A stretch of DNA of 64,000 bases from contig NZ_LMNA01000028.1 in assembly GCF_001422445.1 (NCBI RefSeq), positions 114,274 through 178,273 of the forward strand, written 5' to 3'. This DNA is from Pseudorhodoferax sp. Leaf274 (GTDB lineage Bacteria > Pseudomonadota > Gammaproteobacteria > Burkholderiales > Burkholderiaceae_C). The stretch's first letter is position 1, and every line of letters starts with the position of its first letter. This document shows, piece by piece, positions 25,133 through 29,908 of this stretch. Below the pieces are notes generated by a model. It was given only the letters and a program-made list of their open reading frames with translations, did no database searches and was not told the DNA's origin. Both the position numbers and the translations under genes were made by a program.

Positions 25133-26353
25133 ATGTTCGAAATGACTCCCCGCGTCCAGGCGCTGCACCAGCGCATCTCTGATTTCATGGACGAGCACAT
25201 CTACCCCAACGAGCGGCGGCTGTACGAGGAGGCCGAGCGCCTCGGTGCCTGGGCGGTGTATCCGGTGGTGGAGGAGCTCAAGCCCAAGGCCCGGGCTGCG
25301 GGCCTGTGGAACCTGTTCCTGCCGCAGTCCGAGCGCGGGGCCGGGCTGACCAACCTGGAGTACGCCTCGCTGTGCGAACTGATGGGCCGCTCGCACCTGG
25401 CGCCCGAGGTCTTCAACTGCTCGGCGCCCGACACCGGCAACATGGAGGTGTTCGAGCGCTACGGCACACCGGAGATGAAGAAGCGGTGGCTGGAGCCGCT
25501 GCTCGCAGGAGAGATCCGCTCCTGTTTCGCGATGACGGAGCCGGCGGTGGCCTCGAGCGACGCCACCAACATCCAGTCGGCGATCGTCCGCGATGGCGAC
25601 CACTACGTGGTGAACGGGCACAAGTGGTACACGACGAATGCCACCGACCCGCGCTGCAAGGTGGCAATCTTCATGGGCAAGACCGATCCCGACCATCCCG
25701 ACCGGCACAAGCAGCAGTCCATGGTCGTGGTGCCGATGGACACGCCCGGCGTGCGCGTCGTGCGGCCGCTGGGCGTCTTCGGCTTCTACGGTGTGCCGGA
25801 CCGCGCCTCGGAGGTGGTCTTCGAGAACGTCCGCGTGCCCGTGCAGAACATGCTGCTGGGCGAGGGGCGCGGCTTCGAGATCGCCCAGGGCCGGCTGGGG
25901 CCGGGCCGCATCCACCACTGCATGCGGCTGATCGGCCTGGCGGAGCGCGCGCTGGAGATGATGTGCAAGCGCGGCCTGGCGCGCGTTGCGTTCGGCAAGC
26001 CGGTGGTTCGCCACGAGGTCTGGTACGAGCGCATCGCCGAATCGCGCATCCTGATCGACCAGGCCCGTCTGTTGACACTGCAGGCCGCAGAGCTGATGGA
26101 CACGGTCGGCAACAAGGCGGCAAAGTCCCACATCGCCATGATCAAGGTCGCCGCGCCGCAGATGGCCTGCCGGGTGATCGACTGGGCCATCCAGGCGCAC
26201 GGCGGTGGGGGCACCAACAACGACCTGGGCCTGGCCAGCTTCTACGCCACGGCGCGCATCCTGCGGCTGGCCGACGGGCCCGACGAAGTCCACCGCGAGC
26301 AGCTCGCCAAGATGGAGCTGAAGAAGTACGACACCGCCCGGAGCGCGCCGTGA
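25133..26353 (+). CDS. ACAD10/11-type (LvaC-like) acyl-CoA dehydrogenase
   Basis: 406-residue FAD flavoprotein of the acyl-CoA dehydrogenase superfamily. The FAD/substrate loop is [17 protein letters not shown]. It also has [21 protein letters not shown] and the C-terminal [10 protein letters not shown]. These blocks match, in order, the dehydrogenase half of mammalian ACAD10/ACAD11 and bacterial LvaC, which remove phosphate from 4-phospho-acyl-CoA rather than doing simple alpha,beta-dehydrogenation. The matching kinase half is encoded three genes downstream (28862-29908). The family comparison is from memory and not an alignment. It heads a four-gene operon in which each following start overlaps the previous stop by 4 bp. 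Confidence 0.92.
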
Positions 26354-27684
26354 GCGCCGCCGCTCCGCTGGCGGCGGCAGAGTACCTTGCCGCGGCCCGG
26401 CGTGAGGCCTGGCGCGTGCCCGATCTGGGGGAAGCGGTCGCGCGGCCCGTGGGCACGGTCGGCGTGCTGGGCGCCGGCACCATGGGCCGCGGCATCGCCA
26501 TGTGCTTCCTGAACGCCGGCATCGCCACGGTGCTGGTGGACACGAACGAGGCCGGGCTGCGCGCAGCCGTCCAGACCGTGCGCGGCCTGTACGACGCCAG
26601 TGCCGACAAAGGACGGATCACCGCGCAGCAGGTGGATGCACGCATGGCGCTGCTGCGCGTGCAGACCGACGACGCCGCACTGGCGCAATGCGATCTGGTG
26701 GTCGAAGCCGTGTTCGAAGATTTGGTGCTGAAGCAGCAGGTGGCCGCCCGCCTGGGTGCACTGTGCAAGCCCGGCTGCGTCATCGCGACCAACACCTCCA
26801 CGCTCGACGTGGACCTGGTCGCCGAAGCCAGCGGGCGTCCGGCCGACGTGGTGGGGCTGCACTTCTTCAGTCCCGCCAACGTGATGAAGCTGCTCGAGGT
26901 GGTCCGCGGCCGGCACACCGCGCAGGATGTGCTGGCCACCGCGCTGGCCGTCGCCCGGACCATCGACAAGCAGGCGGTCGTCTCCGGCGTGTGCTACGGC
27001 TTCATCGGCAACCGCATGGCCGAGGTCTACCTGCGGGAAACCGAGTTCCTGCTGCTGGAGGGCGCGACGCCCCGGCAGCTCGACGCCGTGATGGAGTCCA
27101 TCGGCATGGCCATGGGGCCGTGCCGGATGCTGGACATGGCCGGGGTGGATGTGGGCGCCAAGACGGTGATCGAGCGCGGCAAGGCCGGCGGGCTGCCCGA
27201 CGATCCGGGCTACCGCTGCCTGGTCCGCGAACTGCATGCCCAAGGACGCCACGGACAGAAGACCGCAGCCGGTTTCTACCGCTACGAAGGTCGTCTTGCG
27301 GTGGACGATTCCCGCACCCTGGAGATCGCCGCAGCGTTGGCGCAGCGCCACGGCATCGCCAGGCGCGACGGCATCGACAGCCAGGAGGTGCTGGAGCGGC
27401 TGCTCTATCCCATGGTGAACGAGGCGGCGCGCCTGCTGGAAGAGGGCATCGCCCTGCGCGGCAGCGACGTCGACGTGGTGTGGACCAGCGGCTACGGCTT
27501 CCCCGAGGCGCTGGGCGGGCCGTTGTTCATGGCGGACGCCATCGGCCTGGCCGACATCGTCCGGCAGCTCGACCACTACGCCCGACAGCACGGCGATGGC
27601 CACGGCTACTGGACCGTCTCGCCGCTGCTGCGGCAACTCGCGGCCGAGGGCCGCCGGATTTCCCAATGGAGAACATGCGCATGA
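26350..27684 (+). CDS. 3-hydroxyacyl-CoA dehydrogenase family protein (no hydratase domain)
   Basis: 444-residue NAD-dependent dehydrogenase starting at a GTG that overlaps the upstream TGA (GTGA). It begins with about 30 extra residues, then the Rossmann motif [19 protein letters not shown] (about 37-55), [28 protein letters not shown] with the catalytic His, GFIGNRM, and a C-terminal dimerisation domain duplicated as in FadB-type proteins ([15 protein letters not shown]). It lacks the crotonase domain found in FadB/FadJ. It would oxidise the 3-hydroxyacyl-CoA delivered by the LvaC-like enzyme to 3-ketoacyl-CoA for the next gene's thiolase. Confidence 0.92.
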
Positions 27685-28865
27685 GAGAAGCAGTCATCGT
27701 GTCGACCGCCCGCACCGGGATCGGCCGCGCCTACAAGGGCGCCCTCAACAACGTCCGTTCGCCGTCGCTGCTCGGCCACGTCATCTCTCACGCCGTGCGC
27801 CGTGCGGGCGTCGATGGCGGCGAGATCGAAGATGCGGTCTTCGGCACCGTGCTGTCCAGCGGAACGGCCGGCATGAACGTGGCACGCAACGCCGTGCTGG
27901 CGGCTGGCCTGCCCGCCAGCGTGGCAGCCCAGACCATCGACCGCCAGTGCGCCTCCGGCCTGATGGCCATCGCCACGGCAGCCAAGCAGATCACGGGGGA
28001 CGGGATGGACGTGGTGCTGGCCGGTGGGCAGGAGAACATCACGGCGGAACAGAAGTCCTACTTCGAGGGCATCACGCGCGCACGGGACGCGCTGGTCATG
28101 GCGCGGGCCCCCCATGCGTACATGCCCATGCTCGAGACGGCCGAGTTCGTGGCCCGCCAGTACGGCATCACGCGGGAGGCGCAGGACCTCTACGCGCTCG
28201 AGTCGCAACGCCGCACCGTCGCGGCCCAGGCCGCAGGCCGCTTCGCGGACGAGATCGTCGCCTTCGAGACCCGCATGGCTGTGGCGGACAAGGCGAGCGG
28301 CGCCATATCGCACCGCGCGGTCACGCTCGACCGCGACGAGGGCAACCGGCCGGACACCACCCTCGAAGGGCTGGCGGCCTTGAAGCCCGTGGTCGACGGT
28401 GGGGTGGTGACGGCCGGCAACGCCAGCCAGTTGTCCGACGGCGCCGCCGCCTGCGTGCTCATGGAGGCCGGGCTGGCCGAGCGCCGCGGCATCCGCCCGC
28501 TGGGCATCTTCCGCGGCATGGCGGTGGCGGGCTGCGCGCCCGAGGAGATGGGCATCGGTCCGGTGTTCGCCGTGCCCAAGCTGCTGGCACGCCATGGCCT
28601 GCGCGTGGACGACATCGGCCTGTGGGAGCTGAACGAGGCCTTCGCCTGCCAGGCGCTGTATTGCCGCGACCGGCTCGGCATCGACCCGGCGCGCTACAAC
28701 GTGGACGGCGGCGCCATCTCGATCGGCCACCCTTACGGCATGACGGGGGCGCGCCTGGTCGGCCACGCCCTGCTGGAGGGCCGCAGGCGCGGCGTGAAGT
28801 ACGCCGTGGTCACGATGTGCGTGGGCGGCGGCATGGGCGCGGCGGGGCTGCTGGAGATCCTGTGA
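27681..28865 (+). CDS. acetyl-CoA acyltransferase (thiolase)
   Basis: 394-residue thiolase cleaving 3-ketoacyl-CoA to acetyl-CoA plus a shortened acyl-CoA. It has the nucleophile C90 ([11 protein letters not shown]), [19 protein letters not shown] and the second catalytic Cys in [12 protein letters not shown]. Of three nearby ATGs the one at 27681 is chosen: it overlaps the upstream stop as ATGA and has GGAG 9 bp before it. The gene ends with GTGA overlapping the phosphotransferase start, so the four genes are translationally coupled. Confidence 0.95.
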
Positions 28866-29908
28866 CGGCAGGCCGCGCCCCGGACTTCGACACGGCTGCG
28901 CTCGGCGCCTACCTCGCCCGGCACATCGACGGGCTGCGCGCGCCGATCGAGGCGACGCGCTTCGCCGGCGGGCAGTCCAATCCCACTGACCTGCTCACGG
29001 ACGCGCAGGGCTGGCGCTTCGTGCTGCGCCGCAAGCCCGGCGGCGCGTTGCTGGCCTCGGCGCACGCCATCGACCGCGAGTACCGCGTGGCCAGCGCGTT
29101 GGCGGGCAGCACCGTGCCCGTCCCGCGCATGCACTGCTATTGCGACGATCCCTCGGTGATCGGCATGGCGTTCTACGTCATGGCCCATGTCGACGGGCGG
29201 ATCTTCTGGGATCCGGCCCTGCCGGAGCTGCCGCCGGCGGAACGGGCGGCACTGTATGCCGATGTCAACCGGGTCGTGGCCGGCCTGCACCGTCTCGACG
29301 TGCGGGCCATCGGCCTGGAAGACTTCGGGCGGCCCGGCAACTACTTCGAGCGCCAGATCGCGCGCTGGACGCGGCAGTACCGGGCGGCCGAGACCGAGCC
29401 GATCGCTGCGATGGAGCGGCTGATCGCCTGGCTGCCCGCGCATGTTCCCGCCACCGGGCCGGCGACGCTGGTGCACGGCGACCTGCGGATCGACAACATG
29501 ATCGTCCACCCGACCGAGCCGCGCGTGGTCGCGCTGATCGACTGGGAACTGTCGACCCTGGGCCATCCCCTGGCGGACTTCGCCTACCACCTGCTGCCCT
29601 GGCGGCTCACGTCCGAGCAATTCCGCGGCATGGCCGAGAAGTCGCCGCTGCCCGAGGGCGTGCCATCGGAGGCCGGCTACGTGGCGCGCTACGACACTGC
29701 CATGGGCACGGCGACGGATCCGCAGGCCCTGGAGTTCGCCATCGCCCATGCGATGTTCCGCATGGCGGCCATCCTGCAGGGAATCCACCGGCGTGCACGC
29801 GATGGCAATGCGTCGAGCGCCGAAGGGCTGGCCGTGGGCGCCCGTGCACGCCGGATCGCGGACGCCGCGTGGGCGCAGGTGCAACAGCACTTCGCCGACG
29901 CACGTTGA
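28862..29908 (+). CDS. ACAD10/11-type phosphotransferase (APH family, LvaA-like 4-hydroxyacyl-CoA kinase candidate)
   Basis: 348-residue aminoglycoside-phosphotransferase-fold kinase. [10 protein letters not shown] (36-45) opens the nucleotide lobe and K58 lies in VLRRKPGG. The Brenner motif is HGDLRIDN (H205, D207, N212), and the metal Asp is in [10 protein letters not shown] (D227). The sequence resembles the N-terminal kinase half of ACAD11 and LvaA, which phosphorylates the 4-hydroxyl of 4-hydroxyacyl-CoA. It starts at a GTG overlapping the thiolase stop. It is not an antibiotic-resistance kinase: the family relatives sit with acyl-CoA genes. No LvaB-like small partner is seen. Confidence 0.88.

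What the first reader, a model, noticed from the sequence alone, without database searches (positions are those of the whole stretch)
25133..29908. Split ACAD10/ACAD11: probable 4-hydroxyacyl-CoA phosphorylation pathway
The acyl-CoA dehydrogenase (25133) and phosphotransferase (28862) look like the two fused halves of eukaryotic ACAD10/11 and like LvaC/LvaA of Pseudomonas levulinate catabolism. Between them lie 3-hydroxyacyl-CoA dehydrogenase and thiolase, all joined by 4-bp start/stop overlaps. No enoyl-CoA hydratase is encoded. In the Lva pathway LvaC itself delivers the 3-hydroxyacyl-CoA, so the gap is expected. The module would turn a 4-hydroxyacyl-CoA into acetyl-CoA plus a shorter acyl-CoA. 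There is no LvaB-like small protein and no acyl-CoA ligase; a CoA-transferase replaces the latter, so this is not simply the lva operon.
Basis: partly seen in the sequence, partly recalled or inferred. Interest (0 to 1): 0.72.

Follow-up and report, generated by a model that had tools for sequence, protein, structure and literature searches.

The report
Bacterial ACAD10/11-type operon, hydratase domain lost
A bacterium carries, as separate genes in one operon, relatives of the two enzymes that animals fuse to break down 4-hydroxy fatty acids, together with the next beta-oxidation enzymes, one of which has lost its hydratase half; the chemistry is known, the arrangement and its likely role in lactone or diol breakdown are a new variant.

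Summary
The dehydrogenase is of the ACAD10/11 type (471 bits to human ACAD11, 151 to the best other ACAD; five of five signature residues tested are kept) and the phosphotransferase is an ACAD11-type kinase. The 4-hydroxyacyl-CoA reading is thus well supported, but this chemistry and split bacterial pairs are published.

The 3-hydroxyacyl-CoA dehydrogenase is a FadB/FadJ-type protein without its crotonase half; of 43 relatives examined, 41 have it in one frame, one in two frames, and one (the nearest, L016) has lost the catalytic part. (3) A 16-bp operator-like sequence occurs three times in the 64 kb, in the promoter gaps of this operon, of the alcohol/aldehyde dehydrogenase-CoA-transferase operon and of the IclR/transporter genes: probably one regulon. 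A lactonase-family gene lies downstream.

Best reading: a catabolic cluster for 4-hydroxy acids, gamma-lactones or diols. Substrate and activity untested.

The parts
25133..26353 (+). ACAD10/11-type acyl-CoA dehydrogenase (putative 4-phosphoacyl-CoA phosphate-eliminating enzyme)
   Evidence: PDB phmmer 471 bits to human ACAD11 2wbi, 151 to the best chain outside that type; R254, R259, H262, R265, D381 kept; tree
26350..27684 (+). 3-hydroxyacyl-CoA dehydrogenase of FadB/FadJ type, without the N-terminal crotonase domain
   Evidence: Pfam 3HCDH_N and two 3HCDH stretches; matches positions 303-702 of 708 of the FadJ model; relatives carry crotonase
27681..28865 (+). acetyl-CoA C-acyltransferase (thiolase)
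   Evidence: TIGR01930 400 bits, cut-off 240.55; Pfam
28862..29908 (+). APH-fold kinase of the ACAD10/11 kinase-domain type (putative 4-hydroxyacyl-CoA kinase)
   Evidence: PDB phmmer 383 bits to 3dxp, 243 to mouse ACAD11 8v3v; D207 and N212 kept; NCBIfam kinase models score 19-30 bits, cut-offs 188-650
25030..25045 (-). operator-like motif TTTCCGGCGAATGGAA in the SDR/ACAD divergent gap
24063..24078 (-). operator-like motif TTTCCAAAGAACGGAA upstream of the Fe-ADH/ALDH/CoA-transferase operon
30771..30786 (+). operator-like motif TTTCCGAAGAATGGAA in the IclR/Bug divergent gap
29918..30754 (-). IclR-family regulator (convergent with the kinase gene)
   Evidence: Pfam HTH_IclR and IclR_C
24127..24906 (-). 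short-chain dehydrogenase/reductase
   Evidence: Pfam
22785..23903 (-). iron-containing alcohol dehydrogenase nearest to the 4-hydroxybutyrate dehydrogenase model
   Evidence: NF058672 407 bits, below its 500-bit cut-off
21323..22756 (-). aldehyde dehydrogenase (semialdehyde-dehydrogenase-like)
   Evidence: PF00171 526 bits; best NCBIfam model alpha-ketoglutaric semialdehyde dehydrogenase, 504 bits, below its 770-bit cut-off
20065..21270 (-). class III CoA-transferase (CaiB/BaiF)
   Evidence: PF02515 409 bits; most named PDB matches are CoA-transferases
18878..20053 (-). iron-containing alcohol dehydrogenase (second)
   Evidence: Pfam
17790..18836 (-). Bug/TctC solute receptor
   Evidence: PF03401
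30872..31903 (+). Bug/TctC solute receptor
   Evidence: PF03401
31900..36689 (+). branched-chain-type ABC transporter genes (two ATPases, two permeases, binding protein)
   Evidence: Pfam
36734..37498 (+). short-chain dehydrogenase (second)
   Evidence: Pfam
37545..38567 (+). metallo-beta-lactamase-fold hydrolase of the lactonase / methyl parathion hydrolase kind; the N-terminus looks like a lipoprotein signal (by eye)
   Evidence: PDB 284 bits to a reconstructed lactonase ancestor (5hif/6c2c), 256 to methyl parathion hydrolase; AidB lactonase model 180 bits, below its 360-bit cut-off
38606..39778 (+). iron-containing alcohol dehydrogenase (third; its first residues resemble those of 18878-20053, by eye)
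   Evidence: Pfam

Best explanation
The operon encodes a split ACAD10/11-type route for 4-hydroxyacyl-CoA. The kinase (28862) phosphorylates the 4-hydroxyl of a 4-hydroxyacyl-CoA with ATP; the ACAD (25133) removes the phosphate in a redox-neutral, FAD-dependent elimination to give the 2-enoyl-CoA; an enoyl-CoA hydratase encoded elsewhere adds water; the 3-hydroxyacyl-CoA dehydrogenase (26350) and thiolase (27681) finish one beta-oxidation turn to acetyl-CoA and a shorter acyl-CoA. Shown here: gene order, family membership, active-site residues, loss of the crotonase domain, shared promoter motif. Inferred from published mammalian and bacterial enzymes: both central reactions. Inferred from neighbours only: that the 4-hydroxy acid comes from lactones (MBL-fold hydrolase) or diols (alcohol and aldehyde dehydrogenases), that the class III CoA-transferase activates it, and that the IclR protein controls the three operons through the shared motif.
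For: ACAD: 471 bits to human ACAD11, 471 and 468 to two mouse ACAD11 chains, 469 to 4hr3 (M. abscessus, organism recalled), then a drop to 151; R254, R259, H262, R265, D381 correspond to R626, R631, H634, R637, D753 of mouse ACAD11. Kinase: 383 bits to 3dxp, 243 to the mouse ACAD11 kinase domain; catalytic D and N kept. Quick trees pair both with L016 (kinase 98, ACAD 96% SH-aLRT); the ACAD lies in a 95% set with the mammalian rows and 4hr3, away from three ordinary ACADs of the same genome. Paquay 2024: split Burkholderia pseudomallei orthologues can replace either half of ACAD10 (passages). 4-bp overlaps. Shared motif in three promoter gaps. MBL-fold lactonase relative, 4-hydroxybutyrate-dehydrogenase-like Fe-ADH, CoA-transferase.
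Against: No activity data. Chain length of the substrate is unknown; a four-carbon substrate fits poorly with the hydride-to-C5 mechanism proposed by Paquay 2024. The MBL-fold protein could be an esterase or organophosphate hydrolase, and its gene has no copy of the motif in its own upstream gap. The Fe-ADH is below the 4-hydroxybutyrate dehydrogenase cut-off. I did not see the cluster whole in another genome, so conservation cannot back the wider pathway. No hydratase is linked to the operon. H597 of mouse ACAD11 (only partly important in the paper) is Ala here. The kinase has a long end branch (0.89), so its substrate may have shifted.
Confidence: 0.72

Rival explanations
1. The ACAD itself also hydrates the 2-enoyl-CoA and hands 3-hydroxyacyl-CoA straight to the dehydrogenase, so the crotonase half of the FadB/FadJ-type partner became superfluous and was lost.
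For: The crotonase domain is absent here and its catalytic part is missing in the nearest relative L016, where the gene also lies between an 84% identical ACAD and a 64% identical kinase. Some 3-hydroxyacyl-CoA was seen with LvaC and with recombinant ACAD10/11.
Against: Rashan 2025 judged 3-HV-CoA non-enzymatic. Thauera L017 and Haematobacter L125 keep the crotonase although a related kinase and ACAD lie within a few to some 18 kb. The own genome has 45 crotonase-family matches over the cut-off. L016 is a 5.2-kb metagenome contig with another apparent deletion in a receptor gene, so its deletion may be decay or assembly.
Confidence: 0.15
2. The cluster serves 4-hydroxybutyrate or 1,4-butanediol through succinate semialdehyde and succinate (Fe-ADH plus aldehyde dehydrogenase), and the kinase/ACAD operon is a side branch for other 4-hydroxyacyl-CoAs.
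For: The Fe-ADH scores 407 bits with the 4-hydroxybutyrate dehydrogenase model and the ALDH is semialdehyde-dehydrogenase-like.
Against: Both scores are below the curated cut-offs; a CoA-transferase in the same operon and the shared motif point to a CoA-ester route as well.
Confidence: 0.2
3. The kinase and ACAD act on a different CoA thioester, for example a branched, cyclic or terpenoid 4-hydroxyacyl-CoA, or one hydroxylated at another position.
For: Window ACAD and kinase lie on a branch of their own with L016, apart from the pair common in Burkholderiales; the kinase end branch is long. Thauera linaloolentis (L017), by its name a linalool degrader, has the same four activities in one region.
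Against: The five tested residues, among them those that hold the 4-phospho group in the mouse enzyme, are kept.
Confidence: 0.25
4. An ordinary fatty-acid beta-oxidation operon with a misread resistance-type kinase.
For: Dehydrogenase, HAD and thiolase are beta-oxidation families. Rashan 2025 mentions an earlier report of ACAD11 activity on plain long-chain acyl-CoA in lysates.
Against: In their own test mouse ACAD10/11 showed no activity on plain C6-C22 acyl-CoAs; the kinase scores 243 bits to the ACAD11 kinase and 30 bits to the APH(3') model, whose cut-off is 205.
Confidence: 0.04

Closest known systems
Mammalian ACAD10 and ACAD11
   Same: ACAD and kinase families; HCMR-region residues; catalytic Asp of both domains
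   Different: Two separate proteins here; no haloacid-dehalogenase-like domain as in ACAD10; encoded with a dehydrogenase and thiolase
Split kinase/ACAD pair common in Burkholderiales (Burkholderia pseudomallei orthologues tested by Paquay 2024; kinase structure 3dxp)
   Same: Same two families; an ACAD of 45% identity or more lies within the fetched stretch of 66 of 80 kinase loci
   Different: Window kinase only 50-56% identical to 79 of those 80 (64% to L016); separate branch; linked to its own dehydrogenase and thiolase
lva operon of Pseudomonas putida
   Same: A kinase and an ACAD that act on a 4-hydroxyacyl-CoA (from papers that cite Rand 2017)
   Different: No LvaB-like gene, no acyl-CoA ligase, IclR instead of the LvaR sigma-54 regulator; CoA-transferase in the divergent operon
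FadB/FadJ multifunctional beta-oxidation protein
   Same: 3HCDH_N plus two 3HCDH stretches; 45-65% identity to such relatives
   Different: N-terminal crotonase (hydratase) domain absent
qsd gamma-lactone operon of Rhodococcus erythropolis
   Same: Lactonase plus a CoA-activating enzyme for gamma-lactone breakdown (passages)
   Different: No kinase/ACAD pair mentioned in the passages seen; CoA ligase instead of CoA-transferase; TetR-like regulator

Membership tests
ACAD10/11-type 4-hydroxyacyl-CoA pathway | ACAD in the ACAD10/11 clade rather than among ordinary ACADs | tested here: met
   score gap 468-471 against 151 bits; tree
ACAD10/11-type 4-hydroxyacyl-CoA pathway | R626, R631, H634, R637 and catalytic D753 (mouse ACAD11, the paper's numbering) | tested here: met
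   window R254, R259, H262, R265, D381 (the PDB chain index is one lower than the paper's numbers)
ACAD10/11-type 4-hydroxyacyl-CoA pathway | APH-like kinase partner with catalytic Asp and Asn (D220, N225) | tested here: met
   window D207 and N212
ACAD10/11-type 4-hydroxyacyl-CoA pathway | Kinase residues R86 and R176 modelled at the CoA | tested here: inconclusive
   R176 maps to window R164; R86 did not map to an arginine of the mouse chain by the same shift, so it was not judged
ACAD10/11-type 4-hydroxyacyl-CoA pathway | Phosphorylation of 4-hydroxyacyl-CoA and phosphate elimination | not testable with these tools
   needs enzyme assays
ACAD10/ACAD11 proteins | Kinase and ACAD fused in one chain | tested here: not met
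   separate genes 25133-26353 and 28862-29908
lva operon | LvaB and LvaE (acyl-CoA ligase) in the operon | tested here: not met
   genes overlap by 4 bp with no further gene between them; no PF00501 match in the window
lva operon | Orthology of kinase and ACAD to LvaA and LvaC | not tested
   no LvaA or LvaC sequence obtained
FadB/FadJ | Fused N-terminal crotonase domain | tested here: not met
4-hydroxybutyrate dehydrogenase (NF058672), gene 22785-23903 | Score over the curated cut-off of 500 bits | tested here: not met
   407 bits
AidB N-acyl homoserine lactonase (NF047979), gene 37545-38567 | Score over the curated cut-off of 360 bits | tested here: not met
   180 bits; nearer to the lactonase-ancestor and methyl parathion hydrolase structures

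The most novel reading that the evidence does not exclude
In this operon the ACAD10/11-type enzyme carries out both phosphate elimination and hydration and delivers 3-hydroxyacyl-CoA directly; its FadB/FadJ-type partner shed the hydratase domain because of it. The locus would be a natural experiment on the open question whether these ACADs are intrinsic hydratases, set in a dedicated lactone/diol regulon.
Probability: 0.15. Interest if true: 0.7.

Novelty: new variant of a known kind. Interest (0 to 1): 0.45.

Why it matters
ACAD10/11 chemistry was assigned only in 2024-2025, and it is still open what most bacterial pairs act on and whether the ACAD hydrates its own product. This locus is a compact four-gene operon whose dehydrogenase lacks a hydratase, with a predicted operator and candidate upstream enzymes for lactones and diols, so both points can be tested with a few purified proteins. 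It could also be of use for upgrading gamma-valerolactone and other 4-hydroxy acids.

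Tried and rejected
Ordinary beta-oxidation operon: disfavoured by the ACAD score gap, the residues and the kinase type. Antibiotic kinase: the kinase models that matched score 19-30 bits, far below their cut-offs. lva operon: rejected on gene content. LvaC-as-hydratase as the expected reason for the gap: not adopted because of Rashan 2025. 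A hydratase in the upstream frame of the dehydrogenase gene: the frame is open back to 25306 but the crotonase query found nothing there.

Other crotonase-less copies: HAD searches in 399 order, 369 class, 398 phylum and 399 family genomes (sets overlap; at most the top 4 candidates per genome were scored). Besides the window's own place, class and phylum gave none at E <= 1e-135; family gave 7 genomes, all 7 fetched and all with crotonase. In the order set 80 of 399 genomes matched at E <= 1e-110; 29 places besides the window's were fetched, plus the own genome's C25 paralogue, and all 30 have crotonase; the other listed places have open frames of 590 aa or more but were not checked. Of 376 plasmid records with a HAD match four were opened: three have the crotonase in one frame, one (L126) has its first part in another frame. 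Two rows under 45% identity (L025 with, L031 without a crotonase match) were left out of the count. Rows were thinned by hand before the trees: 118 kinase rows at 30% or more were collected, and 79 rows (with 3 PDB chains) went into, 57 rows into; both are quick trees with long-branch warnings and many open forks.

Fe-ADH and lactonase-family searches in 180 family genomes matched 4 and 36 genomes, the own included, at up to 51 and 50% identity; their neighbourhoods were not examined. Literature: Rand 2017 is not held, so lva details come from papers that cite it. Searches, over open-licence papers only, listed no paper that I could see to describe a kinase/ACAD/HAD/thiolase operon. Seen of papers: PMC12440821 abstract, sections 6 (part 1 of 2), 7, 10 and passages; PMC11342911 abstract, section 13 and passages; PMC6692424 and PMC6476934 passages; all others listings only. 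Structure prediction was not run.

Motif: the pattern was written from the three sites, so its exact count is no independent test; that is (three-way best match 31; 0 of 200 Markov-resampled triples reach it, largest 28; 0 of 100 random window triples, largest 29). Only three of the nine gaps of 30 bp or more listed were compared with each other; the whole window was scanned with the pattern and a weight matrix. Binding by the IclR protein is inferred.

Full report
What is there. The four genes lie at 25133-26353, 26350-27684, 27681-28865 and 28862-29908 on the + strand, each junction a 4-bp ATGA or GTGA overlap. Pfam confirms acyl-CoA dehydrogenase, 3-hydroxyacyl-CoA dehydrogenase, thiolase and APH-type kinase. 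The window is part of a 6.7-Mb genome in 30 contigs.

The dehydrogenase. Against the PDB it scores 471 bits with human ACAD11 (2wbi), 471 and 468 with two mouse ACAD11 chains and 469 with a Mycobacterium abscessus chain (4hr3; organism recalled); the next chain has 151 bits. Rashan 2025 (PMC12440821, section 7) names R626, R631, H634, R637 and D753 of mouse ACAD11 in the active site. The PDB chain index is one lower than the paper's numbers; with that shift they correspond to R254, R259, H262, R265 and D381 of the window protein, all identical. H597, found only partly important in the paper, is alanine here. In a thinned tree of 57 rows (quick IQ-TREE, SH-aLRT only) the window ACAD joins L016 (96%), then two 78% identical ACADs, one from its own genome (C1) and one from another genus, and a plasmid one (97%), inside a 95% set that holds the mammalian rows and 4hr3; three ordinary ACADs of the same genome fall outside.

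The kinase. PDB matches: 3dxp 383 bits, mouse ACAD11 kinase domain 243 and 239, 9o56 163, then 46 and 42. Catalytic D207 and N212 are kept, as is R164 (paper R176); the paper's R86 did not map onto an arginine of the mouse chain by the same shift, so it was not judged. In a thinned tree of 79 rows it pairs with L016 (98%), outside a 97% set of 49 rows that holds the kinases common in Burkholderiales, 3dxp and the own genome's second copy at C30; many other forks are open. Of 80 kinase loci, the best kept of 585 in the named-genome search, 66 have an ACAD of 45% identity or more within the fetched stretch, 2 (L016, L017) a dehydrogenase of 45% or more, and 1 (L017) also the thiolase at 60% or more (recounted; some contigs end early).

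What is known. Paquay 2024 (PMC11342911) and Rashan 2025 showed that ACAD10/11 phosphorylate 4-hydroxyacyl-CoA and then eliminate the phosphate without need of an electron acceptor; Paquay replaced either half by the split Burkholderia pseudomallei proteins. Split bacterial pairs with this chemistry are therefore published. In the searches made I saw no paper on an operon that adds a dedicated dehydrogenase and thiolase.

The missing hydratase. The dehydrogenase is a FadB/FadJ-type protein (FadJ model 276 bits, model positions 303-702 of 708). One search gave 36 such proteins of 45% identity or more besides the window's own copies. Of these, 34 have a crotonase match that spans the landmark stretches in the same frame (one of them, L017, supplied the query); L126, a Variovorax plasmid gene, has the first part of the crotonase in another frame; and L016, the nearest relative, keeps only the first part and lacks the stretch with the second oxyanion-hole glycines and the catalytic glutamates (residue roles recalled). 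Seven further relatives from the same family, 51-64% identical, have the crotonase directly upstream in the same frame. So 41 of 43 have it in one frame, 1 in two frames, 1 has lost its catalytic part. The window protein begins at the linker behind the crotonase. The L016 contig is 5.2 kb of a metagenome and shows another apparent deletion, so it may be decayed or misassembled.

Who hydrates? Rashan 2025 judged 3-hydroxyvaleryl-CoA a non-enzymatic by-product; Paquay 2024 left intrinsic activity or contamination open. The own genome has 46 PF00378 matches, 45 over the cut-off, none in the window, and 7 MaoC matches, 5 over the cut-off, none in the window. Hydration in trans is the simpler view; intrinsic hydration remains testable.

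Surroundings. On the other strand lie an SDR, an Fe-ADH nearest to the 4-hydroxybutyrate dehydrogenase model (407 bits, cut-off 500), an aldehyde dehydrogenase, a class III CoA-transferase, a second Fe-ADH and a Bug receptor. Downstream are an IclR gene, a Bug receptor, a branched-chain-type ABC transporter, an SDR, an MBL-fold hydrolase closest to a reconstructed lactonase ancestor (284 bits) and methyl parathion hydrolase (256 bits), and a third Fe-ADH.

A shared promoter motif. Comparing three intergenic gaps at operon heads showed ATTTCCGAAGAATGGAAT (30770), ATTTCCGGCGAATGGAAT (25029, minus) and ATTTCCAAAGAACGGAAA (24062, minus). The three-way best match scores 31; 200 Markov-resampled triples reach at most 28 and 100 random triples of window stretches at most 29. 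A weight matrix made from the sites scores them 35, 32 and 31 bits, the next window site 21 (at 43436), then 12. The pattern is in 4 of 193 fetched loci, all copies of this cluster. I infer one regulon, probably of the IclR protein, that joins the kinase/ACAD operon to the alcohol/aldehyde/CoA-transferase operon and the uptake genes. The lactonase-like gene has no site of its own and may be read through from the transporter genes.

Mechanism proposed. Lactone or diol to 4-hydroxy acid (lactonase relative; Fe-ADH and ALDH), CoA-transferase to 4-hydroxyacyl-CoA, kinase to 4-phosphoacyl-CoA, ACAD to 2-enoyl-CoA, hydration in trans, dehydrogenase and thiolase to acetyl-CoA plus a shorter acyl-CoA. 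Confidence is high for the family assignment, good for the two central reactions, moderate for the pathway, low for the substrate. Constraint is seen between window and L016 (dN/dS about 0.12, 0.27, 0.33; Nei-Gojobori type).

Verdict. Observation confirmed; main interpretation largely right but less new than scored; its account of the hydratase gap weak. New variant of a known kind; interest 0.45.

Noticed in passing
G000 loci L010, L011, L012 (C26:234204, C29:292730, C3:272201): Three more ACADs of 33-38% identity in the own genome carry the same R/R/H/R/D residues as ACAD10/11; two of them sit beside APH-type kinases, so there may be a second, more distant kinase/ACAD family.
   Followed up: partly
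L002/L159, G000 C30:35300-36328: The own genome's second ACAD11-type kinase has no ACAD beside it, whereas one kinase locus in each of the five same-genus genomes searched (L103, L116, L118, L120, L121) does; another ACAD11-type ACAD (C30:459218) lies next to a crotonase.
   Followed up: partly
L016 1655-3608 (Lautropia MAG contig): A Bug receptor lacking its front part and middle (by eye) and a FadB/FadJ gene with most of the crotonase missing, both in open frames, between ACAD and kinase genes: locus decay or assembly fault.
   Followed up: partly
L126 about 11150-11400 (Variovorax boronicumulans plasmid): The crotonase part of a FadB/FadJ-type gene lies in two reading frames in the record; the annotated gene starts in the second one.
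   Followed up: partly
window 42673-46050: Four ORFs with GC of 0.50-0.66 at third codon positions, lower than most of the window; possibly acquired DNA. A weaker copy of the operator-like motif (2 mismatches) lies there at 43437.
   Followed up: no
window 18878-20053 and 38606-39778: Two Fe-ADHs at the two ends of the cluster begin alike (MYQGTY...ERVVFGRPAA, by eye) and look like a duplicated pair flanking it.
   Followed up: no
L125 (Haematobacter massiliensis plasmid pOT1-4, 78-104 kb): Kinase, ACAD11-type ACAD, thiolase, crotonase-bearing FadB/FadJ-type protein and branched-chain ABC transporter are gathered on a plasmid beside genes annotated as acetyl-CoA carboxylase parts.
   Followed up: partly
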